NCBI RefSeq assembly: GCF_001280565.1
Contig: NZ_LGRO01000001.1
Location: forward strand, 186,001-250,000
Reading direction: 5' to 3'
DNA: 64,000 bases
Source of the DNA: Sulfobacillus thermosulfidooxidans
Lineage (GTDB): Bacteria > Bacillota > Sulfobacillia > Sulfobacillales > Sulfobacillaceae
The position numbers and the translations under genes are program-made. Positions 13,235 to 60,622 of the stretch are shown piece by piece; the stretch's first letter is position 1; each line of letters opens with the position of its first letter. Below the pieces are notes generated by a model. The model searched no databases and was not told where the DNA came from. It saw nothing but the letters and a program-made list of their open reading frames with translations.

Positions 13235-14734
13235 AGTGCCTTTTTGTTCGGGTATATCTGTCGGACGTGTGCCACTGCATCATGGAGGATGGCGATTAAG
13301 CCCCCAACGTTCCTAGACATGCGAACCTGTGATGAGGCATCTTTTCTTACGCAACAATCATGGAACCCGCAGTACTGCGGACCGAAAGTCCAACGGGAGA
13401 TCTGCATCCGACATAACTCCGATTCGCTATTCGTTCATGCATCGCGATTGACAAGAATCATGGAATTTCAACACATTCGGACTCATGCAGATGGTCTGTC
13501 TCTTTTTACTGACTCTAACGAGCGATTGATTGCTTAGAGAAGGTTATTGCCAAAGTTTCCATCCTGAATGAGTTGAGGAGAGGGATCGGCTCTACCCAGC
13601 ACTACAAGGGTCCGGACCGATCCCTCAATCCATTCGTATTCGCTCGACCGAGTGAGGAGAAATCGCAATTGGAACGCGTGATTTCGTTTGTCACGAAGCC
13701 ACATGTTCTATATCGTTGCCCTAATCGTCTTTTGAGCAGTGGTTCCCCACCCAGTAGTGGGAGGCCGTCTGGTAATGCCAATGCCGGACGTTGCATTCGT
13801 GGAACTTTTTTCTTTGCGTTCAAACGACTTTGGCAGCAGTATAAGATGGAGTATCCCGAGGGATATCCGCCCTTTGGTAACCCTGCTAAGATCCGGGCAA
13901 ATCGGTCTTGACGTATCCAAGGTTAACCTGGTGGTCAATAACTGCGATTCTTCGGGATATTCAACGAATTCTGTGGGAATATTCCGTGTTTTCCGCACCG
14001 TATACATGGAACTAGACTCCATCGGGGATCGCTGATCGTCGAGTCCCTGACGGATTAATATCGAACAGGCGCCATAGGATGGGCATACCGTAGTGGCTAA
14101 TTCTTCCACGACACCCAATTCGCCGGCAACATATTGAGCTGGTTCGCCACCGGGACTTGGACTACTGCCAGAAGTACTTGTCTGTTGGCAAAGAAGGAGG
14201 ATGTTGTGTTGTTGTTATTCATGCGGGTGGATTGTAGGGGCTACGATTAAAGGCGATAACCATCGTCAAAAAGGCCTTGTGTCGCATGCGGATACGTGTG
14301 CATCCGAAGGTACCAGCCAAACTTTTGTAGAACGACGGCCCCTTGTCGCCAATTCGTGATGCGTTATGCGATGAGGACCGTCTGACCTGCAATGATGAGT
14401 CATGGGAGACTAGTTCGCCTATCGGCAACCCTCAAGGCTACTTCTTTCGCTAAGATTCGCTCAGGATGCGAAATGTGAGAGAAAACCGGTTAAAATACAT
14501 GGCCCATACCTCACACTGAAGGCTTTGAGTTGCTGGTCACGTCCCCGTGTCTCATGATGAGGACTCGAATTGGGGTTTCCTTTGATGACAGTCGGCCGCA
14601 TAGCCGAATGGTTTGGTTGTGCATGATTCCCATCATGGCCATGATTGCGGTGACTATAGAGCGAAATCGTAAAAAGTTGTACTCGCTACGAGTTCTGAAT
14701 GCCGGAAATATACCATATTTATGCTTTATTCGAC
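13235..14734. other. Long non-coding region, partly shared with 55840-57027
   Basis: About 1.5 kb with no convincing gene. Most of it aligns with the region after the other GNAT copy, but with many indels and with unmatched sequence at about 13470-13880. Conserved pieces include GGACCGAAAGTCC (a small stem with a CGAAA loop), a GLDVSK-like coding trace near 13905, and a short frame MIPIMAMIAVTI near 14625. Frames are not kept between copies, arguing against a real gene. It may be decayed mobile DNA. Confidence 0.5.
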
Positions 14735-14740
14735 TATACT
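14735..14740 (+). promoter_or_regulatory. Candidate -10 box of the GGDEF-EAL gene, copy 1
   Basis: CGACTATACTAGAC carries TATACT. The same block is conserved in copy 2 (about 57028) and, with drift, in the degenerate remnant (19311-19316), together with a downstream CCAGGACGGC segment. Conservation in three copies suggests a promoter and leader. No good -35 was seen. Confidence 0.45.
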
Positions 14741-14901
14741 AGACATAAAAGAGGACATCATCCAGGACGGCGAGTAAACAAGAGGCATTTGTTGTCTCCG
14801 ACATAGCACTCGCCAACACATCTCCTCATTCCTGCATCTCTTTGCAAGCAAGAGTGACTCTATCATCTAATTTATGCGATCCCAGAAGGAGATCGGTTGT
14901 G

Positions 14902-17115
14902 ATGGGACAGGAGTTGTCATTCACTCCCTGGTCACAAGATATCATTAACGGCACCTTATTGGCTGGACTGTTGGTAGGAATGTGGGAATGGAACGATCTA
15001 TTGCGCAGGCGATGGTTTTTAGGCAGTCGGCTCTGTTTAACGCTCGGTATTCCCGTCGTGTTGGTGGGTTTAAGTCGGTGGGGACCATTTGAAATTCCGT
15101 TTATGATCTTTCTTGTCGCAGACCTCGCATTGTGGGTCATGATTCCCCACTCTTTATGGCAACTATTGGGCAGTACCCTGCTTATCGCTGGATTTGCCGC
15201 ATCCGCCACACAATGGACTGCTCAGCGAGTTCTAGAAATGATTACTATTACCCTGTTGTCTCTCGCTTTTGCACGACTCATTCCTTATCTCAAAACTTTA
15301 AAGAAACGGATAGGATTGTATGTCATTGTATCCAGTCTGGCGCTGCTTCCCTTGATTCCCGGGCAGGACGCCGTGTCTGATGTCTTGACGTCCATTATTA
15401 TTGCGGGATTTACCGTCGCCTATATTGTCGAACGCGCTGACAGAATGCGGCAATGGGAAGAAGATATCTATCGAGCTGAGCATGACGCGTTAACCGGGGC
15501 TTTCACACGATATGGTCTCAAAACCTGGATGGGCCACTTGTCACCGAGCGCTCGATCCGCGGGCATGATTATAGCGTGCGATCTCGACGATTTCAAATGG
15601 TTCAATGACACCTGGGGGCATGATGTTGGAGACCAAGTATTGCAGGCTTTTGCCCACCGTATTCGGACGGAACTCCGGGCCGAAGACGCGTTAGTGCGTC
15701 CGGGGGGAGATGAGTTTACGATATGGATGCCAAATATTGCACCCCGCGATGCATCCGGGATTGTCGAACGGTTGCACAATGCCGTGACGAAGGAACCCTA
15801 TACATTCCCAACGGGATCATTTGATTTGGGCGTCTCGGTGGGATGGGCAGTTGGAACGCTTTCCGACGACACAGCGCACATCGCCGACCAAAATTTGCTG
15901 CGGGCTAAACGCCAAGGCAAAAATCGTGTCATCAGTGCTCCTGATCTGTCAGAAATCGCCGGTTCCCGAAAGACCCCGACGGCGCAAATCGGTTGGCTCG
16001 CCGACGCGGCCCAGGCCTTTTGGGCACAATGGTCTACCGCAGCGGTTTTGACCGATGCCGCGGGGACCATTGTTGCTGTGAATGCTGCGTATGAACAGCT
16101 AACCGGACGAACAGGGGACGAACTGGTTGCCCAGAAACCCGGCATCAACAGCGCGGGCGAGACGCCCTCTCACGTCTATGAGGCGTTATGGCAGCGTCTA
16201 CAAGACGGCAAAACCTGGCACGGGCATTTAAAAAATCGCCGGCCCGATGGCACTCTATGGTGGGCCTATGAGACCCTGGTTCCCATCGCTATCGGCTCCC
16301 AAGTGATTGGCTATTGGGGCACCGTGCAGGAATGTCCTGCAGAAAGTCCGGTGCCTGTGGCATTCCCACTATCCGATGCGGCGTCGGATGTTGACACCCC
16401 CGAGGGGGATTTTCTACGTCATCTCACGTTCCAGGCCGTATTTCAACCCGTGGTCGACCTGGTGAGTGAATCGGTGATAGGACAGGAGGCTCTAATTCGT
16501 CCGCGATATCATGGACAGATATTGTCTCCGCTCCCAGTCTTTGCGAGGGCGCAAAGAGCCGGAGTGCTGGTGCAACTGGATGGCCTCTGCCTGCAAACGA
16601 TTATTCAGGCAATCCAAGGGCAAGGGCCCTGGCCGGGGAGTCAGACGCTTTTTGTCAACGTGGTGAGCGCAACCTTGAAGAATCCGCCACGCTTTCGGCG
16701 TCATTGGCAGGATCTTCGTGAGATCGTGCCGCCAAATCAATTGGTCATCGAGGTGTCCGAGCGACACGTCGACGGGGTTGACTGGGAGACGTTAACGCAA
16801 CCGTATCCCGAGGTGATCTTCGCTCAGGACGATGTGGGGGCGGGGGAATCTGATTTAGCACGACTGGTACGCTGGCACCCGGGCTGGATCAAAATCGACA
16901 TCGCGCTAGTGCGCCGGATTGGCGACGATCGTCGCAGTCGAACCCTTATCCAGACATTGACAGACTGGGCGCATGACCAAGGGATGCGGGTCATTGCGGA
17001 AGGGGTGGAGACGGAGTCTCAAGCCACGCTGCTTCGCCAATGGGGGGTGGATGCTGCTCAAGGTTATTTCTGGGCGCATCCGATGCCGCAGTGGATCTTG
17101 CAGATAACCCGCTAA
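14902..17115 (+). CDS. Membrane GGDEF-PAS-EAL protein (c-di-GMP turnover), copy 1
   Basis: An ATG at 14902 (or GTG at 14899) follows AGAAGGAG; an in-frame TTG at 14842 is less likely. The order is five to six transmembrane helices (first ~175 residues), a short linker, GGDEF, PAS and EAL. The diguanylate cyclase signature is exact (PGGDEF), with the inhibitory RxxD site (RAED) five residues before it. The PAS segment contains VLTDAAGTIVAVNAAYEQLTG. The phosphodiesterase half keeps EALIR, FVNV, VIEVSE, DDVGAG, KID and AEGVE, so both activities look intact. It is a bifunctional membrane sensor of unknown input, duplicated as 57195-59408. Relative to that copy, changes concentrate in the membrane part. 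Confidence 0.93.
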   Translation: MGQELSFTPWSQDIINGTLLAGLLVGMWEWNDLLRRRWFLGSRLCLTLGIPVVLVGLSRWGPFEIPFMIFLVADLALWVMIPHSLWQLLGSTLLIAGFAASATQWTAQRVLEMITITLLSLAFARLIPYLKTLKKRIGLYVIVSSLALLPLIPGQDAVSDVLTSIIIAGFTVAYIVERADRMRQWEEDIYRAEHDALTGAFTRYGLKTWMGHLSPSARSAGMIIACDLDDFKWFNDTWGHDVGDQVLQAFAHRIRTELRAEDALVRPGGDEFTIWMPNIAPRDASGIVERLHNAVTKEPYTFPTGSFDLGVSVGWAVGTLSDDTAHIADQNLLRAKRQGKNRVISAPDLSEIAGSRKTPTAQIGWLADAAQAFWAQWSTAAVLTDAAGTIVAVNAAYEQLTGRTGDELVAQKPGINSAGETPSHVYEALWQRLQDGKTWHGHLKNRRPDGTLWWAYETLVPIAIGSQVIGYWGTVQECPAESPVPVAFPLSDAASDVDTPEGDFLRHLTFQAVFQPVVDLVSESVIGQEALIRPRYHGQILSPLPVFARAQRAGVLVQLDGLCLQTIIQAIQGQGPWPGSQTLFVNVVSATLKNPPRFRRHWQDLREIVPPNQLVIEVSERHVDGVDWETLTQPYPEVIFAQDDVGAGESDLARLVRWHPGWIKIDIALVRRIGDDRRSRTLIQTLTDWAHDQGMRVIAEGVETESQATLLRQWGVDAAQGYFWAHPMPQWILQITR

Positions 17116-17342
17116 CGAGAGCCTGTTGTGGCGTCCGAGGAGGAACTGACTCTCCTCCGCATCTCTGTGCAGACGCATTGGACCGGCAGTGGTGAACTCG
17201 ACCCGTTATAAAGTCGACCCCACAAGCCTGTTGGACTACTACCGTACCGTCGGGACGTTCAACTCTACTCATCATGGGGATAGCGGTAGCGTCTCGTCCG
17301 GGGCGAAACCCATTACACGCTAGTCAAGGTAGGTGTTTTACG

Positions 17343-17936
17343 ATGTTTAAGGACTCAATACCCAATCCGTCATTAGCCCAGTCAGGACCCAATGATCCAA
17401 CGCGGAAATATAGACAAAAACTGGTAGGGGGATTACGCATCGTGTTCGGGGTGTTCTGGCTCATTGATGCCCGACTCAAATGGTCACCGGCGTTTTTTCA
17501 CGAGTACGTGGGTCTGTTGAAAGCCGCCGCGGTGGGACAGCCTCCGTGGTTGCAGCCCTGGTTTCATGGTTGGATCGCACTCGTCTCGCCACATCCGGAT
17601 GTTTGGGCCGTTCTGACTGCGCTAATAGAAACGGTAACGGCGCTGGGCTTGATCTTCGGATTTGCTCAAAAACTGGGATATCTCATCGGGAGCCTCTTTA
17701 GTTTAGCGATATGGAGCACAGCAGAGGGGTTTGGCGGTCCGTACACCCCCGGCGCCACCGATATTGGCACGTCCATTATTTATTTTTTAGTCTTTGTCTA
17801 TTTGGCTGCCATGCAATATATGGAGGGATTGCCAGCCTATAGCCTTGATCGGTGGATCATCGCCCACTGGACGCCCTGGCGAAAGATTGCCACGTTTTCC
17901 ACCGATGCAACAGGGTGGCCCAGTGATCATCCATGA
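17343..17936 (+). CDS. DoxX-family membrane protein, copy 1
   Basis: The start ATG at 17343 follows AAGGTAGG; an upstream in-frame ATG at 17274 lacks such a site. The 197-residue protein has four hydrophobic segments, a conserved VFWLIDARLKWSPAFF after the first helix, and FGGPYTPGATDIGTSIIYF before the last, as in DoxX/DoxD-like proteins. Some relatives are subunits of thiosulfate:quinone oxidoreductase, which would suit a sulfur oxidiser; others have undefined redox-related roles. No DoxA partner is nearby. It lies between the c-di-GMP gene and the sigma factor. Confidence 0.7.
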   Translation: MFKDSIPNPSLAQSGPNDPTRKYRQKLVGGLRIVFGVFWLIDARLKWSPAFFHEYVGLLKAAAVGQPPWLQPWFHGWIALVSPHPDVWAVLTALIETVTALGLIFGFAQKLGYLIGSLFSLAIWSTAEGFGGPYTPGATDIGTSIIYFLVFVYLAAMQYMEGLPAYSLDRWIIAHWTPWRKIATFSTDATGWPSDHP

Positions 17937-17962
17937 CGGGAAGCCCCCCGGACACGAAAGAG

Positions 17963-18247
17963 GTGAATTTTGTGGGATGGCGAAGAATTGGTGTTGTGGG
18001 GGCCGCAATAGCCTCCGACGCGCGCCCCAAGTCAATGCGAACCCTTAGGCTTTCGTATCGTCCAAACACCTGTGGTCTGGATATCGGATTGTGGCGTGTC
18101 GATTTCGATGGCCGCTTACGGTATCAATGGAACTGGTTACTGGGTTACCGCATCCCGCGCCGGATCACACACCACGGGAGGCGTTTGGTTGGGCTGTCCG
18201 AGAGATCAAACGGCATGAACGAAACAATTGGCCAGCGTGACGCGTGA
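17963..18247 (+). CDS. Possible small ORF between DoxX and sigma genes, copy 1
   Basis: A frame from GTG (17963 or 17972) after AAAGAGG runs about 90 codons to 18247 and is open in both duplicate copies (60253-60537). Between copies I count about four silent and six replacement changes, so selection for this protein is not evident. An overlapping frame is open only in copy 2. There is no recognisable domain; Arg-rich. Confidence 0.3.
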   Translation: MNFVGWRRIGVVGAAIASDARPKSMRTLRLSYRPNTCGLDIGLWRVDFDGRLRYQWNWLLGYRIPRRITHHGRRLVGLSERSNGMNETIGQRDA

Positions 18248-18332
18248 TCCGCTGGCGTCGTCGACGGTGCAGGGCATGTGGTCGTGGGCGTATGCTCTAG
18301 GCGAATATTGGAAGAACGGGGGAGAGGGCGAC

Positions 18333-19061
18333 ATGACCAATAACACCAATAACCTCAACACAAGATCCGCTAGGGGGTCTCGGCAGAGCCGGACGCTCTT
18401 GCCGACTGATGATTCTCCGCAAAAGACCGCGGAGGAGCCGGACGAGGCCACGTGGCACCAGTGGATAGCCCGTGCGCAAGCAGGAGATGAAGCGGTGTGG
18501 GCGTCGATTTTTGCGGCGGCCGACGGATTCGTTCGGCGCATGCTCCGGGGCTATTATTGGCCGGGGTTCGACAGTGATAGGGACGATGGAGAACAAATTG
18601 CACGGATCGGCGTGTGGCAAGCCGTGATGCAGTATCAGCCAACCCGTCAGATCCCGGTGCGTGCTTGGGTGCGGTGGGTTGTGCGTCGACGACTCGCCGA
18701 TGGCGTGCGCCAGGCCACCCGGCACAAACAGGTGTTTTATCGTCACGCTTTGCGGTTGGATAGTCCGTGGGGAACGGAAGGCGAGACCAACTCACCTCTC
18801 GTGACGGGGTACCACCGATTAGCTGCCGACACATGTTCTGATCCCCTGCAATGGGTAGAGCGTCTAGAGGAACGCAACCACTTGTACGCGGGTATGGAGG
18901 CATTGACGGCATGGGAATGGCAGGTTCTATGGGATGTGGCCGACGGGTTATCCTATGGCGAGATTGCCCGGCTTCGCAGACGGCACCCGAAGGCGGTGGA
19001 CAACGCCTTACAACGCGCTCGGCGCAAACTCCGGCAGTATTGGGCGAGCAAAAAGGTGTAA
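18333..19061 (+). CDS. Sigma-70 family RNA polymerase sigma factor (sigma-H-like), copy 1
   Basis: The ATG at 18333 follows GGGGGAGAGGG; the frame is open further upstream but without a site. The 242-residue protein has a region-2-like part (EQIARIGVWQAVMQYQ then VRAWVRWVVRRRLADG) and a region-4 helix-turn-helix (GLSYGEIARLRRRHPKAVDNALQRARRKL). This is the layout of SigH/ECF-type factors. The last residues (ASKKV) differ from copy 2 because the duplication boundary falls here. Target genes are unknown; the neighbouring sensor and DoxX genes are candidates. Confidence 0.85.
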   Translation: MTNNTNNLNTRSARGSRQSRTLLPTDDSPQKTAEEPDEATWHQWIARAQAGDEAVWASIFAAADGFVRRMLRGYYWPGFDSDRDDGEQIARIGVWQAVMQYQPTRQIPVRAWVRWVVRRRLADGVRQATRHKQVFYRHALRLDSPWGTEGETNSPLVTGYHRLAADTCSDPLQWVERLEERNHLYAGMEALTAWEWQVLWDVADGLSYGEIARLRRRHPKAVDNALQRARRKLRQYWASKKV

Positions 19062-21117: not shown

Positions 21118-21500
21118 GTCTTGTAGAGACCGAGAGAGCACGGGGCGATGTGTCATAGGGTGGGACTGATGCTCAGGCAAGATGTTTTTAGGGTGATTGA
21201 CATTCAATGGAAACAATTGGTCAAGGTCTACGTCATCCCGGGTACCAACAACAATCTTCCGTGAATACGACATTTTGGGAGGTGCATGCTCGCCACGATG
21301 AACTCCGGCATTATGCCTTATGCCGGACGGTCCTCCTCGCATATACATCACCAGACTCCTATCCACATATTTTGGAGATTGGTCAAGACATTGCGGGATC
21401 GGAAGTGAGCATGTATGATGGCATCTACCAAGAAGCTTTGTCGCAAAGAATGTAAATTTTCTCTGACCAAACATCACGAAATAGGGAATGCAGAGAGGGA
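21118..21500. other. Intergenic stretch between convergent genes
   Basis: It contains only a weak 82-codon frame (21207-21455) with no ribosome-binding site or known motif. Confidence 0.4.
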
Positions 21501-21526
21501 ACCCCCCGGGAGTTCTCGGGGGGTTT
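21501..21526 (-). terminator. Terminator between convergent lipoprotein and MFS genes
   Basis: ACCCCCCGGGAG and CTCGGGGGGT form a very strong GC stem with a tiny loop, located 50 bases after the MFS stop. T-runs on both sides are short (TTT), so it may work in both directions. Confidence 0.7.
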
Positions 21527-21576
21527 GTAAGGGATACATGACAAAGAGTAGGACACTCATTCATACCGATGAGATG

Positions 21577-22911
21577 TCATTCCAAACTGCGGCCGTTGGT
21601 TCGGGGACCCATAATACCAATAACCAATGCCACAATTGCCATCGCGAGCGAAATGAATGCAAATACGCCCAGGACACCAAAGGATTTCAATAAGGCCACA
21701 ATGATAAATCCGACGAGCGCCGAACTTAAGCGGCTCCAACTATACGTAAAGCCCACACCGGTTGCTCGAATGCGTGTCGGATACAATTCGGCTTGATAGG
21801 AATGAAACAACGTGCTAAACCAGTTATTAAGCAGCGTAATGACAATACCGAGCGTAATGATGCCGACAGGACTGCGCATCTGGGAAAACACTAAACCCGC
21901 AATGCCGATACTCAGGGACACGACAACAATTTGCCACTTTTCTGACATCACCATGCCAATGATTGGTCCCAGGGGATTGACTAACGCGATTAAAAACGTG
22001 TAAAGCAACGAATGAATTAACGTAATGCCTTCACTCACCAACAAGGTGGGAACCCACGCTGCGAATCCGTAAAAACCAATGGTTTGAAAAAGATTGAAAA
22101 TCAGCAACATGATGGTGCGTGAACGGTATGGAGGGATCCAAATTTCGCGAAAGTGACCCCGGGATTCATGTTCTTCCGCACCCGGGTGCACGGGCGGCAA
22201 CGCTCCGACTTCTTGTGCAACCGTCGTTTCAATGTGTTGCATCACCGCATTAGCTTGGGTCATATCGCCATGATTCTCATACCAGCGCGGGGATTCGGGT
22301 AATCCTTGGCGGATCCACCAGACGACAACCGAACCTAAGGCACCGATTAACACCACCCATCGCCATCCAGCCATCAGCACGTGGGTGGGGACGAGAGTAT
22401 AGGCCAAAAACGCCACGACCGGGACCGCCCAATAGGTGATAAATTGACTGAAGGCAATATAATAGCCGCGCCGGGAGGCCGGAGTCATTTCACTGACATA
22501 GGTATCGATGACAACAAGCTGCGCACCGACCCCAAACCCCGCGAGAAGACGGAACACATCAATCCAGACGGCATTGGGCGAAAAGGCCATAAGGATCGTG
22601 AAAAACGAATAAATGAGCAACGAATAGACATAACCATTGCGGCGACCAATTTTGTCACTAATATTGCCGAAGATCGATGTGCCAAAAAACATCCCCAAAA
22701 ATCCCGCGCCCACAAAATAGGCTAATCCGGAGACGGGCATCACTTGAGCATGAACCAGGGCGGCCCCCACGGCCCCCGCCATGAACAATTCGTAAAATTC
22801 AAAGAGTCCTCCGGTTGAGACTCTTGCCACTAAGCGTTGAAAATAGGGCGCTGGTGGCAATCGATTCATTCGGTCGGCAATCGTAAAGCGGGTATTTGCA
22901 GCCGTTGCCAT
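21577..22911 (-). CDS. MFS transporter (metabolite:H+ symporter type)
   Basis: 444 residues, twelve predicted helices, preceded by GAAAGGAGTGG. Family signs are GNISDKIGRRNGYVYSLLIY in the loop between helices 2 and 3, the RxxxGxGxG-like RLLAGFGVGAQ, the PESPRW motif before the central loop, and ELYPTRIRATGVG in the second half. This pattern is that of the sugar/aromatic-acid/organic-acid symporters. As last gene of an IclR-controlled operon with a CoA-transferase and a lyase, it most likely imports the organic acid that the operon degrades. Confidence 0.85.
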   Translation of the reverse strand: MATAANTRFTIADRMNRLPPAPYFQRLVARVSTGGLFEFYELFMAGAVGAALVHAQVMPVSGLAYFVGAGFLGMFFGTSIFGNISDKIGRRNGYVYSLLIYSFFTILMAFSPNAVWIDVFRLLAGFGVGAQLVVIDTYVSEMTPASRRGYYIAFSQFITYWAVPVVAFLAYTLVPTHVLMAGWRWVVLIGALGSVVVWWIRQGLPESPRWYENHGDMTQANAVMQHIETTVAQEVGALPPVHPGAEEHESRGHFREIWIPPYRSRTIMLLIFNLFQTIGFYGFAAWVPTLLVSEGITLIHSLLYTFLIALVNPLGPIIGMVMSEKWQIVVVSLSIGIAGLVFSQMRSPVGIITLGIVITLLNNWFSTLFHSYQAELYPTRIRATGVGFTYSWSRLSSALVGFIIVALLKSFGVLGVFAFISLAMAIVALVIGIMGPRTNGRSLE

Positions 22912-22987
22912 ACTTCATCCACTCCTTTCATGATTTCGATTTATCTGACAATTTTATGCGTAATCATGCTTGCTGCGCCCCCCATGA

Positions 22988-23854
22988 TTAATGCGGGGGC
23001 GCCAGGTGTTGCGCAATCACGTTCAATAAGCGCTGCCGAATCCAAGGCAACTGGCTGATGTCAATGTGGGTGGCCAGGCCTTGAGACTGAAAGAAGGCAA
23101 CAAGTTTTTCCGTATCCAGATTCCCCGCCGCTCCCGGGGCATATGGGCAGCCCCCCAGTCCGGCTAAGGCCGATTCAAATGTGTGAACTCCGAGCTCATA
23201 AGCCGTCGCGACATTGGCCAGTCCCCATCCCATGCGGTCATGAAGATGGAGGGCTAAGGGGATTGTCGGTGCGATGGACTGAACCACACGGATGCGTTCT
23301 TTGACCTGAAGGGGCGTGGCGGTTCCTAGGGTGTCGGCAATCCCGAGTTCATCCACCCCCATGTCACAATAACGTTCCGCGATCAGGGCGACCGCATGGA
23401 TGGGGACAACCCCTTCAAAGGGACATTCAAACGCGGTGCTAATAGCGCCTCGGACTTTGAGACCCGCCTCGTGCGCCCGTCTCGTAGCGGCTGTGAGTTG
23501 GGACAGCGTCTCATCGCGAGAACGATTAAGGTTGGCTTGGTTGTGACGTTCTGATGCGGACACGACTAGCGTCACCGTATTGGCCCCGGCGGCAATCGCG
23601 CGTTCCACGCCTTTGAGATTGGGGGCCAAGGCGATCCACTCCCCCGGAAGGTCTTGCAGCTGGGACAGAACGGCCTCGCCATCGGCTAACAAGGGCACCC
23701 AACGGGGGTGTACAAATGCAGCGACTTCGATCGCGTGAATACCGGCCTGGAACAGAGCGCGGATCAAGGCGACTTTGTCGGGAACCGGAACGTAACCCGT
23801 GGCATCCTGAAGCCCATCGCGGGGTGTCACATCCACTATCTTGACTGGCGTCAT
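22988..23854 (-). CDS. HMG-CoA lyase family enzyme
   Basis: 288 residues of a TIM-barrel DRE-type metallolyase. TPRDGLQD provides the Arg/Asp of the active site, IEVAAFVHPRWVP the conserved Glu loop, LHLHDRMGWG the metal-binding His pair, and GLGGCPYAPGAAGN the catalytic Cys signature. It would cleave 3-hydroxy-3-methylglutaryl-CoA, or a close 3-hydroxyacyl-CoA, to acetyl-CoA and a keto acid. Its start overlaps the stop of the amidohydrolase gene by four bases, so they are translated together. With the CaiB-type CoA-transferase upstream it forms an activation-then-cleavage pair. Confidence 0.9.
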   Translation of the reverse strand: MTPVKIVDVTPRDGLQDATGYVPVPDKVALIRALFQAGIHAIEVAAFVHPRWVPLLADGEAVLSQLQDLPGEWIALAPNLKGVERAIAAGANTVTLVVSASERHNQANLNRSRDETLSQLTAATRRAHEAGLKVRGAISTAFECPFEGVVPIHAVALIAERYCDMGVDELGIADTLGTATPLQVKERIRVVQSIAPTIPLALHLHDRMGWGLANVATAYELGVHTFESALAGLGGCPYAPGAAGNLDTEKLVAFFQSQGLATHIDISQLPWIRQRLLNVIAQHLAPPH

Positions 23855-24931
23855 CCCGTCTTTGCCCCCTTCTTTAACAGATTTTTGACGACCTGGCCAT
23901 GGGCCACGATCACGATGGGACGCCAGTATCCCGGTCCCACTTCAACCATGCCTTCAGCATCGGGAAATCTCGTGCGTGAAGAGCGGTAGCGCCAAACGAC
24001 CAGGGAATGAGGCGGCAGTGGGATTCCGAGATATTGTGTGGGATGGGTCACCACCCCGTGATAAATCGTTGACAGTGGCCACCCTCCGGCGTACAGTTTG
24101 GAGCAAACATAACTGAGGTCATAAACAGGCGGATGATGCCAGGTGGCTTGGGTGAGGTCGGTGCTTATGGTATGAGGCAAGAGACCTGCGTCCGTAAGAC
24201 GGTGAAATGTTCGCCAGGAAAAATGCCGGGACCCGTGTCCCACATCCAGCCAAATTCCGCGTTTTACGCCCTCTTCTAAGGTTTTTATGGCTGAGGCCAC
24301 TCTGGGCAAAGTGGCCACGCAGGCCATGAAAGACATGCGTCATCACATCACCAGGTCTTAAGGATTCGACGAGGGACTCAGGCGGTAAAAATGATCCACT
24401 GACGTGCACCATCAAGGGAACTTGAACCTGTTGGGCAATGGCAATCCCTGTCGTCAGGAGTCGAGCGTCATCGGCGGCGTCAATCTGCCCCAGTCGAATT
24501 TTAATTCCCGCGATATCGTGGCCATGGTGTTCCATGAGGTGCTCAATATGCTGGGTATCCAGGGGGGTCAACCCGGGAAATGCTATCCGGGCGGGATGAT
24601 GTTTCAGGCCATGGGGAAGCAGGGAGATCCAAAGTTTAATGTGGGGCAGGGGCGATCTCCGTGTGGGAACCGGGTCGCGCCATCCCAGGGTCCCCGCATC
24701 GCCTCCCACCAAGACGCCCGCGCGCAGTAACACCGGCGGGGATACTCCCAGCGTATCGGGCCCCCAGTGAATATGAACATGGAAATCGGCGAGACCGGGG
24801 AGAAGAAGATCCGTATCACGCAAGGAAAACACGCGATCCTCGTCGGGCGTTGCGATACTCCACTGGCTGTTCATGACCAGGGAGCCGTTTCGATCAAATT
24901 TTAGTCCGCCCTCAAATTGCCATGTCCCCAC
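23851..24931 (-). pseudogene. Amidohydrolase/deacetylase-family metallohydrolase, one frameshift
   Basis: The N-terminal frame (24931 to about 24300) has LPGLADFHVHIHWG, the metal-binding HxH of the amidohydrolase superfamily, and GDVMTHVFHG. The C-terminal frame (to 23851) has GIWLDVGHGSRHFSW and HTISTDLTQ, holding later metal ligands and the DVGHG motif typical of the EF_0837/AHA_3915-type subfamily. Full length would be about 360 residues. The frames join near 24290-24315. As the flanking genes are intact, a sequencing error is possible. In the operon it might release the acid substrate from an amide or lactone. Confidence 0.75.
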
Positions 24932-24954
24932 TGAGCGTTTCCTCCTTCCGGCCT

Positions 24955-26151
24955 TTAGCGAATAATTCCTTGGTCACGCCAAACGGCTAACTCTGTGGGA
25001 GAAATGTGAAGAAGGGAGGTTAGTACGTCGTCGGTATGTTGTCCGATGGCGCCGCCTGCCCAACGCACGGTTCCGGGATGACGGGTGAGCTTGGGCACAA
25101 TCCCCAGCATGCCCGTGGGTTCCCCATTATCCTGCGGAACATAGGTAATCATTTGGCGGGATTGAATGTGGACATCTTCGGCAATATCGCGGGCACTCAT
25201 GACAGGACCGGCTGGAATGCCTGCCTGTAATAAGCGCTGCATCAAATCTGATAAGTCGTGTTCGATGGTCCATGCGGCGATCAGCGTATCGAGTTCGGTC
25301 GCATGCCGCACCCGTTGTGCATTGGAACTGAAGCGGGGATCGTGAACCAGTTCGGGGTGTTGCATAACCGTGGTGAGTGCCGCAAATGTCGCCGAACTAT
25401 TGGCGCCAATGGCAATCCACTGCTGGTCGCGGGTTGGATACGTGTTCGAAGGAGCGGCTCGCAGAAGTTGATTGCCAGTGCGCTCTTGAATAATGCCGGC
25501 ATTGACATAATCGGGAATCAACGCTTCCGTAATGGCCAGAACCGATTCGACCAACGAGACATCAATGTGCTCCCCTAATCCATCACGACCGCGTTGAACC
25601 AGAGCGATGAGAATCCCAATGACCGCATAGAGCGCCGCCAATTCATCGCCGAGCGAGACTCCCGTGCGCACCGGAGGACGATCAGGAAAACCCGTAATAT
25701 AGCGGATACCTCCCATCGCTTCCGCAATATTTCCAAACCCCGGACGGTCGCGGTATGGACCTGTCAGTCCAAAACCCGAAATGTCCACATAGATGAGTTG
25801 CGGATTCAGAGCATGAAGATGCTCATAATCTAATTCCCATTCGGCTAAACGTCCAGGTCGTAAGTTCGCAATGAGGACGTCGCTTTGTTTGGCTAACTCG
25901 CGAATGATGTGCTGACCGGTGGGATGTTTCAAGTTGATGGCAACTAATCGCTTGTTGCGCGATTGCATCGACCACCACCATGAATGCCCGTAAGGACTCA
26001 TAGCCCCCCAATGACGCAGCGGATCGCCCTCTAAGGGTTCCACTTTGATGACGTCAGCGCCAAAATCCGCGAGGATGCGAGTCGCTGACGGGGCGGCGAC
26101 CAATTGGCCGATTTCCAATACGCGAATGCCTTGTAAGCTCATAGACTCCAT
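24955..26151 (-). CDS. CaiB/BaiF family III CoA-transferase
   Basis: 398 residues beginning MESMSLQGIRVLEIGQLVAAP, the classic family start, with FGADVIKVEPLEGDPLR, SRNKRLVAINLKHPTGQ and VDISGFGLTGPYRDRPGFGN further on. These enzymes move CoA between carboxylic acids by an Asp-thioester mechanism. It lies four bases after the IclR gene and upstream of the amidohydrolase and the HMG-CoA lyase-type gene. A likely job is forming the CoA ester that the lyase cleaves. The donor and acceptor acids are unknown. Confidence 0.9.
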   Translation of the reverse strand: MESMSLQGIRVLEIGQLVAAPSATRILADFGADVIKVEPLEGDPLRHWGAMSPYGHSWWWSMQSRNKRLVAINLKHPTGQHIIRELAKQSDVLIANLRPGRLAEWELDYEHLHALNPQLIYVDISGFGLTGPYRDRPGFGNIAEAMGGIRYITGFPDRPPVRTGVSLGDELAALYAVIGILIALVQRGRDGLGEHIDVSLVESVLAITEALIPDYVNAGIIQERTGNQLLRAAPSNTYPTRDQQWIAIGANSSATFAALTTVMQHPELVHDPRFSSNAQRVRHATELDTLIAAWTIEHDLSDLMQRLLQAGIPAGPVMSARDIAEDVHIQSRQMITYVPQDNGEPTGMLGIVPKLTRHPGTVRWAGGAIGQHTDDVLTSLLHISPTELAVWRDQGIIR

Positions 26152-26154
26152 GGT

Positions 26155-26952
26155 TTAGTCTTCCTTATTTACTATGGCCTGTGATGGTTGCGGTGTCGCG
26201 GCCAAGGCGTGTTCATTTTTTGCCGAACAGAGAAGTCGCGTAATCTTTTGCGCTTCCTGCTGTAAGGCGGAAATGATGGCGTCTTGACGGTCTGTCACAA
26301 ACCGTTCTTGGGGACCCGAAATACTTAACGCCGCGATGACGTGGTTGGTTCCGGTGAAAATCGGTACACTGATGGAGCCGAGAGCCGATTCTCGTTCTCC
26401 TAAAGATATGGCCCATTGTTTTTCACGAATTTCTTGCCAATCCGAGAAGCTTGGTGGCGACGGTCCGGGAAAGAAGGTTTGAGACTCGTGAATGAGACGA
26501 TCCCGTGTTTCATCGTCGAGCCATGCGAGTAAAATCCGTCCCGCGGAACCCGCATGTAATGGAAGGGGCGTCCCGACTTGAATCGTATGGCGTAAGGATT
26601 CAACCCCTTCGATCCGGGCAATGCACACGCGGGCGGAGCCAACACGGGTGTAAACACTCGCAGTGTCTCGAAAGGTGCTGACGAGGCGTTGTAAACTTTC
26701 CTGACTGGCCTGTTCTAAGGCGTGAGTGTTCCGTGAAGGGGACGCCCAGTGGATAAGCCGGGGACCCGGTTGATGAGACGACGTTAAAATGCCTTGGTCA
26801 ATAAGGGTTTGGACAATACGGTAAATGGTTGGTCGCGGCAAATTTAATTGCTGGCTCAGGGCCTGCAGTGTGATTGAGGAATCCTCGGTTAAAACATCGA
26901 GAATTTCCGCCATTTTGGAGAGGACAGCAATTCGACTTGAATCTGTTCGCAT
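26155..26952 (-). CDS. IclR-family transcriptional regulator
   Basis: I choose the ATG at 26952 (MRTDSSRIAVLSKMAEILD), which follows GGAAGGTG; the longer frame from 27108 adds an unrelated segment. The N-terminal winged helix (ITLQALSQQLNLPRPTIYRIVQTL) and the C-terminal effector domain (LPLHAGSAGRILLAWLDDE and SISVPIFTGTNHVIAALSISGP) are typical. It is first in the minus-strand operon and probably senses the organic-acid substrate. Confidence 0.9.
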   Translation of the reverse strand: MRTDSSRIAVLSKMAEILDVLTEDSSITLQALSQQLNLPRPTIYRIVQTLIDQGILTSSHQPGPRLIHWASPSRNTHALEQASQESLQRLVSTFRDTASVYTRVGSARVCIARIEGVESLRHTIQVGTPLPLHAGSAGRILLAWLDDETRDRLIHESQTFFPGPSPPSFSDWQEIREKQWAISLGERESALGSISVPIFTGTNHVIAALSISGPQERFVTDRQDAIISALQQEAQKITRLLCSAKNEHALAATPQPSQAIVNKED

Positions 26953-27506
26953 TGTGGACAACACCTTCCATATTCCGGACACTTTTATTATAGAAATGGG
27001 AGAAATAAAAATCAATACAACAAGCAGAAATTTTAGAGAGTTTTGCCCGCCGAGATCCATTTCGGCCCGGGGGTGCCTGATAGGAGTGACTATCCAGCCG
27101 CCTGACACAAGGTTGCTTCCTGTTCTAATCCGTTGTCAGTCGTAGGTTCTAACCTGGGGAAAATGTTACGGGGTGGACGATGTTGGGGGAATCGTGTCTG
27201 CAGGAAATTCTTGCATTGTGCTGGGCGGTATCAGAAACGCAGAGATGCCCATAGTACTGACACACGATCGACCGATGGCCAGTGGCTTGCACCCTGACGC
27301 GCAAGGTGAGCACTCCATAAAAACACGGACACCGTGGGAGGCCTGTCTCACGGGCTGAAACATCCGGTGGAGGCCGCAGAAAAATTCCATTATCCCTTAA
27401 AGTGTCAAATTTTCCATTGCACGTGTTGCAGTACTCCCAGTCTACATCATGGACAGTTGGAGACGTGCGTAAAATTTCCGATTGCAATATACGGATCCGA
27501 AGAATT
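26953..27506. other. Intergenic region upstream of the IclR operon
   Basis: The first ~100 bases should hold the IclR promoter: the AT-rich run AGAAATGGGAGAAATAAAA lies near 26992-27010. Further right, a plus frame from 27173 gives GGIVSAGNSCIVLGGI, faintly PAAR-like, but it is only 61 codons. Nothing else is supported. Confidence 0.4.
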
Positions 27507-28007
27507 TTATAGAAGTTTAACCATGGTATACTCGTGCACCCAATGCCCATTGGGTTGCAGTATGCTGTCGTGCCGAAGACCCTCAACCATAAAACCCTGT
27601 TTGAGGTATAAATTCAGTGCAGCGCGGTTCTCGCAAATCACCGTGAGTTCTAAACGATGAAACTCATGGCAATGTGCCCAGGCCTCCATGGTCCGAAAGA
27701 GTGCGGATCCCAAACCCTGGCCCCGGTGTGCAGCCAGAATTCCCACCACTATGTACCCGGTATGGCGAATCTTGAGCGGGGCCATGGCCTGAAGTGTCAA
27801 GGCTCCGACCAGACGTTGGCCCTCCGCCACTACCCATATCATAGAACGACCGTCCGAGAGAATTTTATGAATGATGTCCCGCTGCTGTGCGACGGTTGTT
27901 TGCCGCTCCCCCGGTGCCATGAGCATGAAATCGGTTTCCAGGTCGAGTTGGCGCTGCATGGTCAAAAAGGCTTCTGCATCATCCTCGGTGATTTGCCGAA
28001 TCTCCAT
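27507..28007 (-). CDS. GNAT-family N-acetyltransferase
   Basis: I prefer the ATG at 28007 (MEIRQITEDDAEAFL), preceded by GGGAGATGG; a GTG at 28025 is the alternative. The acetyl-CoA motif is complete (VGILAAHRGQGLGSALF), followed by LELTVICENRAALNLYLKQGF, as in RimI/PhnO-like small-molecule or protein acetyltransferases. The IscB element is inserted about 40 bases upstream, so the promoter may have been displaced. Confidence 0.85.
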   Translation of the reverse strand: MEIRQITEDDAEAFLTMQRQLDLETDFMLMAPGERQTTVAQQRDIIHKILSDGRSMIWVVAEGQRLVGALTLQAMAPLKIRHTGYIVVGILAAHRGQGLGSALFRTMEAWAHCHEFHRLELTVICENRAALNLYLKQGFMVEGLRHDSILQPNGHWVHEYTMVKLL

Positions 28008-28106
28008 ATTCCATCTCCCACTCACACTTCACATCATTCTTTCACCAAAATTACGCGGCGCGGAAGCCTCGTCCTTCAGGGCGAGGAGGAGCGCCGTCCC
28101 TTCCTT

Positions 28107-29519
28107 TCAATAGGCATATTGGTAACCATCCGCATGGTGGAGGATGTGGCAGTATCGATAGGGAATGCCATCCGCCTTGCCAATTCGAAAGTATCCAGTT
28201 GCCCGGGCTAAGACTCGCCCAACGTGGGTGCCTTGGCGTTTCCCCTTTAGGACCACAGCCCGAACCATGTCGCCGGTTTGGAAACCCATGAACTTCTTTT
28301 GCCGTCGCGCGTGCCGGATTGGGAATCCGTATTTGTCTGTGCCACACCGCTGACGTTTCCCATGGCCGGTGGCTTTGATTCGGAACGCAGGCCTCTTTTC
28401 AACGGTGAGTCGAACCGGTGTGGAAGCCCCAACACAGGCCGCGTCCAGCCAGTGAGTCTTCGGCAACCCCAGCCGGGTCCGGTTATATTTGGTCTGCCCT
28501 CCGGTCCCGGTTTCCAAGGGGAGGTCCAAGGCCCGTAACCGGTGGAATAGAGCCCGGCGGGTGGCGTTAACCGCAGCGGCGTCCTTGAGCGAAACCTTGA
28601 GTTGTTTCATGGCTTCAGGAAATCGTTGAGCCCGGATCCGGTCGATTTTCCGAGAGGATTCCTGCAACTGGGACAGCCATTCTTCAGGTTGGAGGTTGTC
28701 CTTGGATTCGTTGCAAGTCCGGCATGCAATGACTAGGTTGCTGATGCGGTCCGTGCCTTTGGGTCCGTGTTTGGGGTTCTTGGGCACGACATGCTCGACG
28801 TTCAGCACGGGATCCCCGGATGCCCCATCACAGTAGGCACATTGATGTCCAAACTTCTCCAGCAGATATTCTTTGACTTCCTATCCAAAGAGGGTGCCTT
28901 GCTGATACTCCACACCTTGAATCTCTGGATTTTCGATCTTCTGCAGGTCAAACCGAACCAGTTCCATGGAGATCGCTGTTGCGGGAAGGAGTCGGATCAG
29001 CCGTGTTGTCCAGGTGACGGTGTTGGCCACTCGGCTTTCCAGGGATGGCGGAAGCCACCTTGAACCAACCGACATGTTAGACGGCTCCTTGGCATGATTC
29101 CGACACGTTTTGTGTTTATGGCGAGCATTCTTGCCGCAGACAATACACTTCTCAGGATTCCGATTTCGGAAACGGGGCTTACGGTAGCGGGTTTTGCGGT
29201 TGCGGCGACCATGCCGTAAAGAAGCCCGATCGTGCATACGGGAATGGATCTGTTCGCCCCGATGTTCCAGTTCGGCAGCCCAGACCACACGGTTTGTGGA
29301 TTCGTTGAGAACCGCAAACCCAGTAGTCTTGCTGCCGGAATCGATCTTGATCCGATGGGGGTGGACGATGGATTCCTCCATGGTCCGGTCCTGCAAAATG
29401 ATCGTGAAGGGGTAGCGGCGAAACACAACCGCCTTGCCCTTCTTGAGCAATTCTCGGGCCCGCGCCGGATGGCAGGGATCTAGAGGTTTCCGGTTGGTGT
29501 CAAGGACGAAAACGCGCAT
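28107..29519 (-). pseudogene. iscB: IscB RNA-guided nuclease (OMEGA system), one in-frame amber codon
   Basis: The ATG at 29519 follows TAAGGAG. The order is a PLMP domain (NRKPLDPCHPARARELLKKG, here PLDP), RuvC-I (IKIDSGSKTTGFAVL with the catalytic Asp), an Arg-rich bridge helix (RASLRHGRRNRKTRYRKPRF), RuvC-II (ISMELVRFDLQK), HNH (VEHVVPKNPKHGPKGTDR with RTCNESKDN) and RuvC-III (KTHWLDAACVG). About 470 codons, normal for IscB. The only defect is TAG at 28881-28883, directly after GTLFG and before EVKEYLLEKFG, where relatives have Tyr. A GTG at 28808 could restart the HNH half. Without readthrough the protein is split before HNH. Confidence 0.9.
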
Positions 29520-29790
29520 GGTTGAATCTCCTTACGGGAACAACTCGGCTTGCGCCGGTAACGTGAGCCTCGTCGATGTTACCCAGGCTTTTTGCATCCA
29601 GAGCACTGGCTTCGACCCCGTAGGCCTGTTTAACTCTGGACGACAGGGCAGCGGACTGGCATCGCGCATCCGCAGGTGTCATGACCCGGATAACGTAGCC
29701 CGATGGGGCAAATGCCCCCTGGCTGGGACTGGTCAACCTCGGGTTTGAAGCTTACTTCAAGCCTCGCCCTTGAGGGCGGGGTGGTTGACA
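29520..29790 (-). ncRNA. Probable omega-RNA (guide RNA scaffold) of the IscB element
   Basis: IscB omega-RNAs are encoded just upstream of the nuclease on the same strand. The 270 bases here contain no gene, open on the minus strand with CAACCACCCCGCCC then the hairpin CCGCCCTCAAGGGCGAGG, and continue with several GC-rich stems, e.g. GGGGGCATTTGCCCC near 29705-29719. Their position between the element end and the IscB start is that of known scaffolds. The guide would be about 16 bases lying just outside the element, to the right of ~29790, read on the minus strand. No expression evidence. Confidence 0.65.
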
Positions 29791-30657
29791 GTCTGCGACA
29801 TACCACGTGCTTGCTTTTCGTATCATACGGCGTGTGGCCTCTTAAATCAACATTTTCTCGGGTTCTCGCAGAGTATTTGCCTCACGCGCTATCCGTCCGG
29901 GTTAGCGCGTTGGGGTTTGCTCGCGCCAAGCGAGAAGTGGCGTCCAATGGATCGTTCCGTCTTCAAAATTTCAGTCAGCAGGGCATCGCAATCCTTCGAG
30001 TTCGCCTCTCGCATGCCACCATGGATCGACCTGGCCGAGCGTAACTCGGACGAACAAAACGGAAAATTCCCACCTCAGCTTGCACATCACCCAAGGATCT
30101 GGCCTTGGGAGAGCGAGAAGAATGGCGGTTGCATCTGTTTTTGATTTTTGATGGGGCCTGGTATAGTTTGGCACGTTGAGGATCGATGCGCTCGGCAATT
30201 ACTTAAGTCGGTCTGTTATGCCCAAAGGTTACTGGGGTAGGATGAAGGATCCTTATGAATGATGGTATTGAAGCATGGACAATTGACCCGGTCGTAATTC
30301 AAGGACCAAGCCATACCGTGAGTCACAGCACTCAAGAAACCGATTGCCCCGGCGGCAAACTCCGGTCCGCGGACCAGGAAGTCCGCGGCTGACGGCGACG
30401 GATACGGGATTGGGAAAAGAGGAATGCGATCTGAAAAAAGCGATGTGCTGCGTCGCCAACGATTGGCAGGGAAATGCGCTGTCAATCAAGAACGCTGCGC
30501 CCCCTTACAGGGATTTCGGAGTGGGTCCTATACATGGCGAGATGCGCCCGCCAGACGGGCGCGATCTCATCGGGGACGGGAAATGCCCGGTCTGCTGCCG
30601 TCCAAATACGGGCCAATGTCGATTCTGGTAGCCGTATAAGGGCTTCGGATCGCCGTG
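29791..30657. other. Non-coding region right of the IscB element
   Basis: No gene is supported over ~870 bases. A perfect 8-bp inverted repeat, CCGCGGAC / GTCCGCGG with a 6-base loop, is at 30367-30388, and a TATAGT box near 30160. Short frames here lack ribosome-binding sites. The aldolase gene ends at the right border, so the stem at 30367-30388 may help end its operon. Confidence 0.4.
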
Positions 30658-55839: not shown

Positions 55840-57027
55840 GATTCTTTTTTGTTGGGAGGATATCTGTCGGACGTGCCACCGCATCATGGAGGATGGCTAT
55901 TAAGTCCCCAACGCTTCTAGACATCGGTCAAGACCTGCGAACCCGTGATGAGTCATCTTCTCATACGAGACGATCCCGTAGCACTGCGGACCGAAAGTCC
56001 AACGGGAGACCTGCACACGACACAACTCCAACTCCCTATCCGTTCATGCATCGCGATTGACAAGAATCATGGAATTTCAACACTGTTGTGGAAACCATCG
56101 ATCAAACCCTGCTAAGATCCGGACAAATCGGTCTTGACGCATCCGAGGTTGACCCTGGTGGTCATTAAATGCGATTCTCCGGGTATTCAGCGAATTCTGT
56201 GGGAATATTCCGTGTTTTCCGTATCGTATACAAGGAACTGGACTCCGTAAGAGGGGATCGCTAATCGTCGAACCCCTGGCGGATTAATACCAGACAGGCC
56301 GCCAAGGGATGGGCAGACCCTAGTGGCTAGTTCTTCCACAACACCGGGTGCGCCCGCAACATATTGAGCTGGTTCACCACCGGGACTTGGATAACTGCCA
56401 GAAGTACTTGCCTGTTCGTACAGACGGAGAATGTTGGCTGTTATTTCGTGCGGGTGGATTGTGGGGGGATGATAATAGGCGATAACCATCGTAAAAAGAT
56501 TCTGTGTCGCATGCGGATACGTGTGCAACCGCAGGCGCCAGCCAATCTTTTGTAGAACGACGGCCCCCTGTCGCCAATTCGTGACGCGTTATGCAATGAG
56601 GACCGTCTGATTTGAATGGGCATAATCTTTTGTGATGATGAGTCATGGGAAACTAGTTCACCTATCGGCAACCCTCATAGCTACTTCTTTGGCCACGATT
56701 CGCTCAGGATGCGAAACCTGAGAGAAAACCGGTTAAAATACATGGCCAGACCTCACAATGAGATGTCATGATGCGCTATGGGTCGCCACCAGCCCGCTTT
56801 ACCGAGACTTCTCCCAGAAGGCTTTGAGTGCAGGTCACGCCTCCGTGCCTCATGATGAGGACTCACCTTGGGGTTTTTTGATGGCTGCCGGCGGCATAGC
56901 CGAAGGGTTTTGCATGATTCCCATCATGGCCATGATTGCGGTGACTATAGCAGCGAACTATCGGAAAAAGTTTACTCGCTACGACTTTTAAACGCTGGAA
57001 ATATACCATGGTTATGCTTTATTCGAC
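55840..57027. other. Non-coding region shared with copy 1
   Basis: There is no convincing gene in ~1.2 kb. It aligns in patches with 13235-14734. Conserved elements are the TTAAGTCCCCAACGCTTCTAGACAT motif at about 55899, GGACCGAAAGTCC near 55988, and a short MIPIMAMIAVTI frame near 56916. The same frames are broken differently in the two copies, as expected for decaying sequence. Confidence 0.5.
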
Positions 57028-57194
57028 TATACTAGACATAAAAGAGGACATCATCCAGGACGGCGAGTAAACAAGAGGCATTTGTTGTCTCCGACATAGC
57101 ACTCGCCAACACATCTCCTCATTCCTGCATCTCTTTGCAAGCAAGAGTGACTCTATCATCTAATTTATGCGATCCCAGAAGGAGATCGGTTGTG

Positions 57195-59408: not shown

Positions 59409-59633
59409 CGAGAGCCCGTTGTGGTGGCGTCCGAGGAGGAACTGACTCTCCTCCGCATCTCTGTGCAGACGTATTGGATCGGCAGTGGTGAACTCGACCT
59501 GTTATAAAGTCGACCCCACAAGCCTGTTGGACTACTATCGTCGGGACGTTCAGCTCTACTCATCATGGGGATAGCGGTAGCGTCTCGTCCGGGGCGAAAC
59601 CCATTACACGCTAGTCAAGGTAGGTGTTTTACG

Positions 59634-60227
59634 ATGTTTAAGGACTCAATACCCAATCAGTCATTAGCCCAGTCAGGACCCAATGATCCAACGCGGAAAA
59701 ATAGACAAAAACTGGTAGGGGGATTACGCATCGTGTTCGGGGTGTTCTGGCTCATTGATGCCCGACTCAAATGGTCACCGGCCTTTTTTCACGAGTACGT
59801 GGGTCTGTTGAAAGCCGCCGCGGTGGGACAGCCTCCGTGGTTGCAGCCCTGGTTTCATGGTTGGATCGCACTCGTCTCGCCACATCCGGATGTTTGGGCC
59901 GTTCTGACTGCGCTAATAGAAACGGTAACAGCGCTGGGCTTGATCTTCGGATTTGCTCAAAAACTGGGATATCTCATCGGGAGCCTCTTTAGTTTAGCCA
60001 TATGGAGCACAGCAGAGGGGTTTGGCGGTCCGTACACCCCCGGCGCCACCGATATTGGCACGTCCATTATTTATTTTTTAGTCTTTGTCTATTTGGCTGC
60101 CATGCAATATATGGAGGGATTGCCAGCCTATAGCCTTGATCGGTGGATCATCGCCCACTGGACGCCCTGGCGAAAGATTGCCACGTTTTCCACCGATGCA
60201 ACAGGGTGGCCCAGTGATCATCCATGA
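59634..60227 (+). CDS. DoxX-family membrane protein, copy 2
   Basis: It is nearly identical to the 17343-17936 protein (differences such as NQSLAQ and RKNRQK in the N-terminal tail), with the same AAGGTAGG site. Four membrane segments and the FGGPYTPGATDIG motif are kept, so purifying selection appears stronger here than in the sensor domain of the neighbouring gene. Confidence 0.7.
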   Translation: MFKDSIPNQSLAQSGPNDPTRKNRQKLVGGLRIVFGVFWLIDARLKWSPAFFHEYVGLLKAAAVGQPPWLQPWFHGWIALVSPHPDVWAVLTALIETVTALGLIFGFAQKLGYLIGSLFSLAIWSTAEGFGGPYTPGATDIGTSIIYFLVFVYLAAMQYMEGLPAYSLDRWIIAHWTPWRKIATFSTDATGWPSDHP

Positions 60228-60252
60228 CGGGAAGCCCCCGAACAAGAAAGAG

Positions 60253-60537
60253 GTGGATTTTGTGGGAGGGCGAAGAATTGGTGTTGTGGGGGCTGCAATG
60301 GCCTCGGACGCGCGCCCCAAGTCAATGCGAACCCTTAGGTTTTCGTATCGTCCAAACACCTGTGGTCTGGATATCGGATTGTGGCGTGTCGATTTCGATG
60401 CCCGCTTACGGTATCAGTGGAACTGGTTACAGGGTTACCGCATCCCGCGCCGAATCACACACCACGGGAGGCGTTTGGTTGGGCTGTCCGAGAGATCAAA
60501 CGGCATGAACGAAACAATTGGCCAGGGTGACGCGTGA
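60253..60537 (+). CDS. Possible small ORF between DoxX and sigma genes, copy 2
   Basis: Counterpart of 17963-18247, starting at a GTG after AAAGAGG. A second overlapping frame (to 60508) is open here but has a TAG in copy 1. No family. Confidence 0.3.
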   Translation: MDFVGGRRIGVVGAAMASDARPKSMRTLRFSYRPNTCGLDIGLWRVDFDARLRYQWNWLQGYRIPRRITHHGRRLVGLSERSNGMNETIGQGDA

Positions 60538-60622
60538 TCCGCTGGCGTCGTCGACGGTGCAGGGCATGTGGTCGTGGGCGTATGCTCTAGGCGAATATTG
60601 GAAGAACGGGGGGGAGGGCGAC

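What the first reader, a model, noticed from the sequence alone, without database searches (positions are those of the whole stretch)
28045..29806. IscB OMEGA element with readable guide position
A full-length IscB with PLDP in place of PLMP, both nuclease domains and an upstream structured region. By the known arrangement, the guide is the ~16 bases just right of ~29790 read on the minus strand, so the natural target should match the empty insertion site. There is no TnpA in the element.
Basis: partly seen in the sequence, partly recalled or inferred. Interest (0 to 1): 0.7.

Follow-up and report, generated by a model that had tools for sequence, protein, structure and literature searches.

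The report
IscB insertion element with broken nuclease
This is an ordinary 1.7-kb IscB insertion element whose guide RNA is intact and copies the start of a host nucleotidyltransferase gene, but whose nuclease gene carries a premature stop codon, so this copy is probably dead.

Summary
The element is real: an Rfam HEARO (omega-RNA) hit at 29789-29558 on the minus strand (144.8 bits) lies directly before an IscB reading frame, 29519-28107. The IscB is not full-length. An in-frame TAG (28881-28883) replaces a Tyr found in 94 of 97 relatives, and any restart downstream lacks the HNH CxxC. Five catalytic positions remain, as do 105 of 109 highly conserved columns, so the break looks recent. PLDP is the commonest variant in this sample, not an oddity. 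The guide position is as predicted: 29805-29790 minus, TGGTATGTCGCAGACT. It matches the start of an MNT-type nucleotidyltransferase gene in family relatives (GTATGYCGCAGACC followed by GTGAA). A conserved TTGATT-17-TATGAT promoter of that gene lies about 33 bp outside the element and could transcribe the omega-RNA. The right flank also starts with GTGAA, and related elements carry RTGA there, suggesting an NNRR-type TAM. The right flank is not the rest of the MNT gene but the neighbouring GNAT gene: a 7-kb paralogue in the same genome has an MNT remnant followed by GNAT, so the MNT body was lost between two GTGAA motifs. No TnpA in the element; one intact Y1 transposase exists elsewhere. New member of a known kind, probably inactive.

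The parts
28046..29789 (-). whole IscB/HEARO insertion element (omega-RNA + iscB pseudogene)
   Evidence: left end: where MNT-upstream homologues and window part and where HEARO model position 1 falls; right end: where the 7-kb paralogue and window part, TTTTG|GTGAA as in related elements
29558..29789 (-). omega-RNA scaffold (Rfam HEARO RF02033, model 1-211 complete)
   Evidence: cmscan 144.8 bits, E 2.9e-30
29790..29805 (-). guide, 5'-TGGTATGTCGCAGACT-3', outside the element, in the start of a lost MNT gene (ATG TCG CAG ACT)
   Evidence: adjacent to HEARO position 1; homologous to MNT gene starts in relatives
29822..29850 (-). promoter-like TTGATT-17-TATGAT of the former MNT gene, about 33 bp from the element
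   Evidence: 1 found against 0.1 expected in shuffles; conserved upstream of MNT in six relatives with spacer 16
28107..29519 (-). iscB reading frame (470 codons) interrupted by one TAG
28881..28883 (-). premature TAG, codon 213, Tyr in 94 of 97 relatives
28881..29519 (-). N-terminal ORF, 212 aa: PLDP, RuvC-I (D60), bridge helix, RuvC-II (E186)
28107..28808 (-). C-terminal ORF from GTG, 233 aa: HNH without its first CxxC, RuvC-III (H356, D359), TAM-interacting region
28067..28086 (-). right-end hairpin CCTCGCCCTGAAGGACGAGG
   Evidence: sequence; comparable hairpin and CTTCC after it in related elements
28041..28045 (-). TAM-like GTGAA in host DNA at the right end
   Evidence: host origin shown by the paralogue, which has ...ATATCCC|GTGAAAG without any element
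21170..28045 (.). segment duplicated in the same genome (C1:497328-504256, 96% identical), ends exactly at the element's right end; contains the GNAT gene 27507-28025

Best explanation
A decayed copy of an IscB-type OMEGA insertion sequence (IS200/IS605-like, without its own TnpA). It sits immediately after codon 4 of a former MNT (NTP_transf_2) nucleotidyltransferase gene. While active, the former gene's promoter (or the element's own) would have transcribed a guide plus scaffold; the guide spells the insertion site, and IscB would have cut copies of that site without the element next to GTGAA, so that repair restores the element. A Tyr213-to-amber mutation has since ended this, leaving an intact omega-RNA and a truncated protein. 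Shown: RNA match, frame, stop, guide homology, promoter conservation, paralogue. Inferred: transcription, target cutting, TAM, transposition in trans, and that the stop inactivates.
For: HEARO 144.8 bits, complete. IscB domains, and 105 of 109 columns conserved in at least 93% of relatives kept, including D60, E186, H243, H356, D359, which align with OgeuIscB D61, E193, H247, H340, D343 (residues named in PMC9640706). TAG at codon 213; other IscB relatives carry TAG, TAA or TGA at other places, as decay would give; no PylS above cut-off in the genome. LE flank matches the MNT promoter and start codon in G017, G018, G012 (72-76% DNA) and diverges at the element boundary; the pattern GTATGYCGCAGACYGTGAA finds MNT genes across the family, against one hit for the reversed control in 61 genomes. 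RE flank GTGAAAG is host DNA (paralogue); relatives' right ends show TTTTGGTGAAAC, TTTGGTGAATG, TTTGGTGATAG and the like. An intact Y1 transposase gene exists at C2:473527.
Against: No transcript data. The joined site ACT|GTGAAAG was not found empty in any genome. The RE flank is not the continuation of MNT, so one extra deletion must be assumed. The right-end/TAM reading of relatives was by eye. A base error in the assembly cannot be excluded, and suppressor tRNAs were not surveyed over the whole genome.
Confidence: 0.85

Rival explanations
1. The element is alive: the TAG is an assembly error or is read through, and IscB is made full-length.
For: All catalytic residues and 105 of 109 conserved columns kept; omega-RNA scores higher than those of its near relatives L059, L009 and L062.
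Against: TAG present in the genome record; no PylS above cut-off; a second conserved position is also changed, RuvC-I DPG to DSG, P in all 97 relatives; the genome has no intact target for the guide left (16 hits with up to 3 mismatches against 18 for the control, the best other one with 2).
Confidence: 0.1
2. Order of events: the MNT body was deleted first between two GTGAA motifs, and the IscB element then inserted normally at the fused site ATGTCGCAGACT|GTGAAAG. (A variant of the best explanation on history, not on function.)
For: G019:C224 shows the MNT start fused to the following HEPN-like gene at a GTGA-type motif with no element present, so this deletion can occur without the element; both junctions in the window are exact.
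Against: The G019 event has another right end-point; the alternative, insertion into intact MNT followed by deletion from the element's right end to the next GTGAA, explains the window equally.
Confidence: 0.45
3. The two flanks were brought together by recombination between two copies of the element, one in MNT and one before GNAT.
For: Flanks come from two places; the GNAT side is a 7-kb duplication ending at the element.
Against: No second near-identical copy in the genome (next IscB 42% identical and decayed); MNT and GNAT were already neighbours, as the paralogue shows, so a short deletion is enough.
Confidence: 0.1

Closest known systems
IscB / HEARO OMEGA elements (e.g. OgeuIscB, KraIscB-1; Rfam RF02033)
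   Same: omega-RNA directly 5' of iscB, guide from the left flank, PLMP-type N-terminus, split RuvC plus HNH, no TnpA in the element, NNRR-type motif (GTGA) at the right end
   Different: iscB interrupted by an amber codon; right flank not the continuation of the target gene
IsrB
   Same: RRXRR/PLMP proteins with a HEARO-like RNA; three IsrB-like ORFs without an HNH region occur in the same genome (L004, L005, L006)
   Different: this one has an HNH domain between RuvC-II and RuvC-III
TnpB OMEGA elements (IS200/IS605)
   Same: RNA-guided nuclease of a transposon that records its insertion site
   Different: guide at the 5' end from the left flank, HNH present, unrelated RNA

Membership tests
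IscB OMEGA element | omega-RNA (HEARO) immediately upstream of the ORF | tested here: met
   RF02033 complete, 144.8 bits
IscB OMEGA element | PLMP-type domain, RuvC I-III with D, E, H/D, bridge helix | tested here: met
   PF14239; D60, E186, H356, D359
IscB OMEGA element | HNH domain between RuvC-II and RuvC-III | tested here: met
   PF01844 at 227-275 of the read-through frame
IscB OMEGA element | uninterrupted nuclease gene | tested here: not met
   TAG at codon 213: a member by descent, probably not by function
IscB OMEGA element | guide taken from the left flank, target followed by a TAM found at the right end | tested here: met
   guide = MNT start; GTGAA follows it in relatives and also follows the right end
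IscB OMEGA element | empty site found in a relative | tested here: inconclusive
   both halves found separately (MNT start with GTGAATATT; GNAT with GTGAAAG); joined site not found
IscB OMEGA element | RNA made and target DNA cut | not testable with these tools
   needs RNA-seq and cleavage assay
IS200/IS605 autonomous element | own Y1 transposase | tested here: not met
   none among the ORFs of the element; one intact Y1_Tnp elsewhere

The most novel reading that the evidence does not exclude
The intact omega-RNA is kept after loss of the nuclease and is used in trans, by one of the three IsrB-like proteins in the same genome or by the truncated N-terminal half, for instance as an RNA-guided binder of MNT gene starts.
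Probability: 0.04. Interest if true: 0.6.

Novelty: new member of a known kind. Interest (0 to 1): 0.25.

Why it matters
It is a well-resolved natural case of where an IscB element sits: the guide can be read, its target named (start of an MNT gene conserved in the family), the likely TAM deduced from native host DNA, and a host promoter identified that would set the guide's 5' end. It also shows that such a copy can keep a perfect-looking guide RNA after its nuclease has died, a caution for mining genomes for active editors.

Tried and rejected
Recoding of TAG: no PylS above cut-off, and the stops in other IscB relatives are of all three kinds at different sites. Conserved programmed stop: the TAG in L009 lies at another codon (about 196), so not shared. 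Split IscB by internal restart: the first start after the TAG (GTG, 28808) lies beyond the HNH CxxC. Present-day target in the own genome: hits no more than the reversed control. The whole 7 kb as cargo of the element: no MNT remainder at the left end of the duplication (tblastn of MNT on the window finds nothing credible). PLDP as a distinguishing mark: commonest variant. RNA folding alone is only weakly better than shuffles (z -2.0); the case for the RNA rests on the covariance model.

Full report
Observation. On the minus strand, 29519-28107 encodes an IscB-like protein in one frame, but the frame holds an in-frame TAG at 28881-28883 (codon 213). Read through, the 470-aa product matches PF14239 (RRXRR, E 5e-66) and PF01844 (HNH, E 6e-7) and aligns with solved IscB structures, best TbaIscB (E 9e-51), then OgeuIscB. 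Directly upstream, 29789-29558 minus is a complete match to Rfam HEARO, the omega-RNA of IscB: 144.8 bits, E 2.9e-30.

State of the protein. In an alignment with 97 relatives, P0001 keeps 105 of 109 columns conserved in at least 93%. The four departures are P61S next to the RuvC-I aspartate (P in all others), the stop at Tyr213 (Tyr in 94 of 97), R216K and P310S. The catalytic positions D60, E186, H243, H356, D359 correspond to D61, E193, H247, H340, D343 of OgeuIscB (alignment; residues named in PMC9640706). The first restart codon after the TAG is a GTG at 28808, beyond the CxxC of the HNH. The copy is therefore most likely a young pseudogene. Other relatives carry stops at other positions (TAG, TAA, TGA), so decay of these genes is common; PylS is not present above cut-off.

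Left end and guide. Window 29790-29911 is 72-76% identical to DNA upstream of and including the start codon of a 109-aa nucleotidyltransferase (PF01909, MNT-like) gene in G017, G018 and G012. Similarity ends at the element boundary. The 16 nt outside the element, read 5'-3' on the minus strand, are TGGTATGTCGCAGACT; relatives read GTATGCCGCAGACC and continue GTGAATATTCC. A search for GTATGYCGCAGACYGTGAA with up to two mismatches gave hits in 16 of 61 genomes, with only one hit for the reversed control; several of the hits checked are the start of this MNT gene and others are unrelated places. In G017 a HEPN-type second gene appears to follow MNT (my reading of the ORF 3909-4277 of L142; not tested by a family search).

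Promoter. A TTGATT-17-TATGAT site at 29850-29822 minus (one found, 0.1 expected) is conserved, with spacer 16, upstream of MNT in six relatives. It lies about 33 bp outside the element. Inference: a transcript starting about 7 nt downstream would carry some 25 nt of guide, so the host gene's promoter would set the 5' end of the guide RNA.

Right end. The element ends ...CGTAATTTTG at 28046; next is GTGAAAGAATG. That this is host DNA is shown by a paralogue: window 21170-28045 is 96% identical to C1:497328-504256 of the same genome and parts from it exactly there. The paralogue reads ...GACAGTGATATCCC|GTGAAAG. Related elements have GTGA or ATGA at the same place (TTTTGGTGAAAC in L013, TTTGGTGAATG in L016, TTTGGTGATAG in L018, TTTTCTGTGAAAC in L060, ATTCTGATGAAAG in L026, read by eye). 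OgeuIscB needs NNRR (PMC9640706); GTGA fits this.

Flanks. The right flank is not the rest of MNT. In the paralogue a decayed MNT remnant (its start cut off by other DNA) lies directly before GNAT. So MNT and GNAT were neighbours, and in the window the MNT body is missing between the GTGAA expected at codon 5 and the GTGAAAG before GNAT. G019:C224 shows a similar loss of MNT between two GTGA-type motifs with no element present. The deletion may thus have come before or after the insertion; both orders stay open.

Mobility. The element has no transposase. The genome holds one intact Y1 transposase gene and fragments, one more complete HEARO RNA with a decayed IscB (C2:560188), and three IsrB-like ORFs. 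Only few HEARO/IscB genes are reported near TnpA (PMC9755519), so this is usual.

Verdict. A real IscB/HEARO element at a site that can be explained, with readable guide, probable TAM and probable host promoter, but with a broken nuclease. It is a member of a known family by descent. It is not a novel system.

Noticed in passing
window 21170-28045 and G000:C1:497328-504256: 7-kb duplication (96%) inside one genome, with IclR-like regulator, CoA-transferase-like, MFS-like and GNAT genes (all but GNAT named by eye); ends exactly at the IscB element.
   Followed up: partly
window 14518-19044 and 56817-61334: 4.5-kb direct duplication, 95.7% identical, holding a GGDEF/EAL-like protein, a DoxX-like membrane protein and a sigma-factor-like gene (names by eye).
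   Followed up: no
L143 (G019:C224) about 4014: MNT gene lost between two GTGA motifs so that its promoter and first codons are fused to the HEPN-like gene behind it; no insertion element present.
   Followed up: partly
L004, L005, L006 (G000:C1:609194, 334593, 577706): Three IsrB-like ORFs of roughly 350-430 aa without an HNH region; two of them (L004, L006) with weak HEARO-like RNAs upstream (45 and 73 bits).
   Followed up: partly
L009 (G023:C94:345-1733): Nearest IscB among the family's genomes (57%) also has a single TAG, at another codon (about 196).
   Followed up: yes
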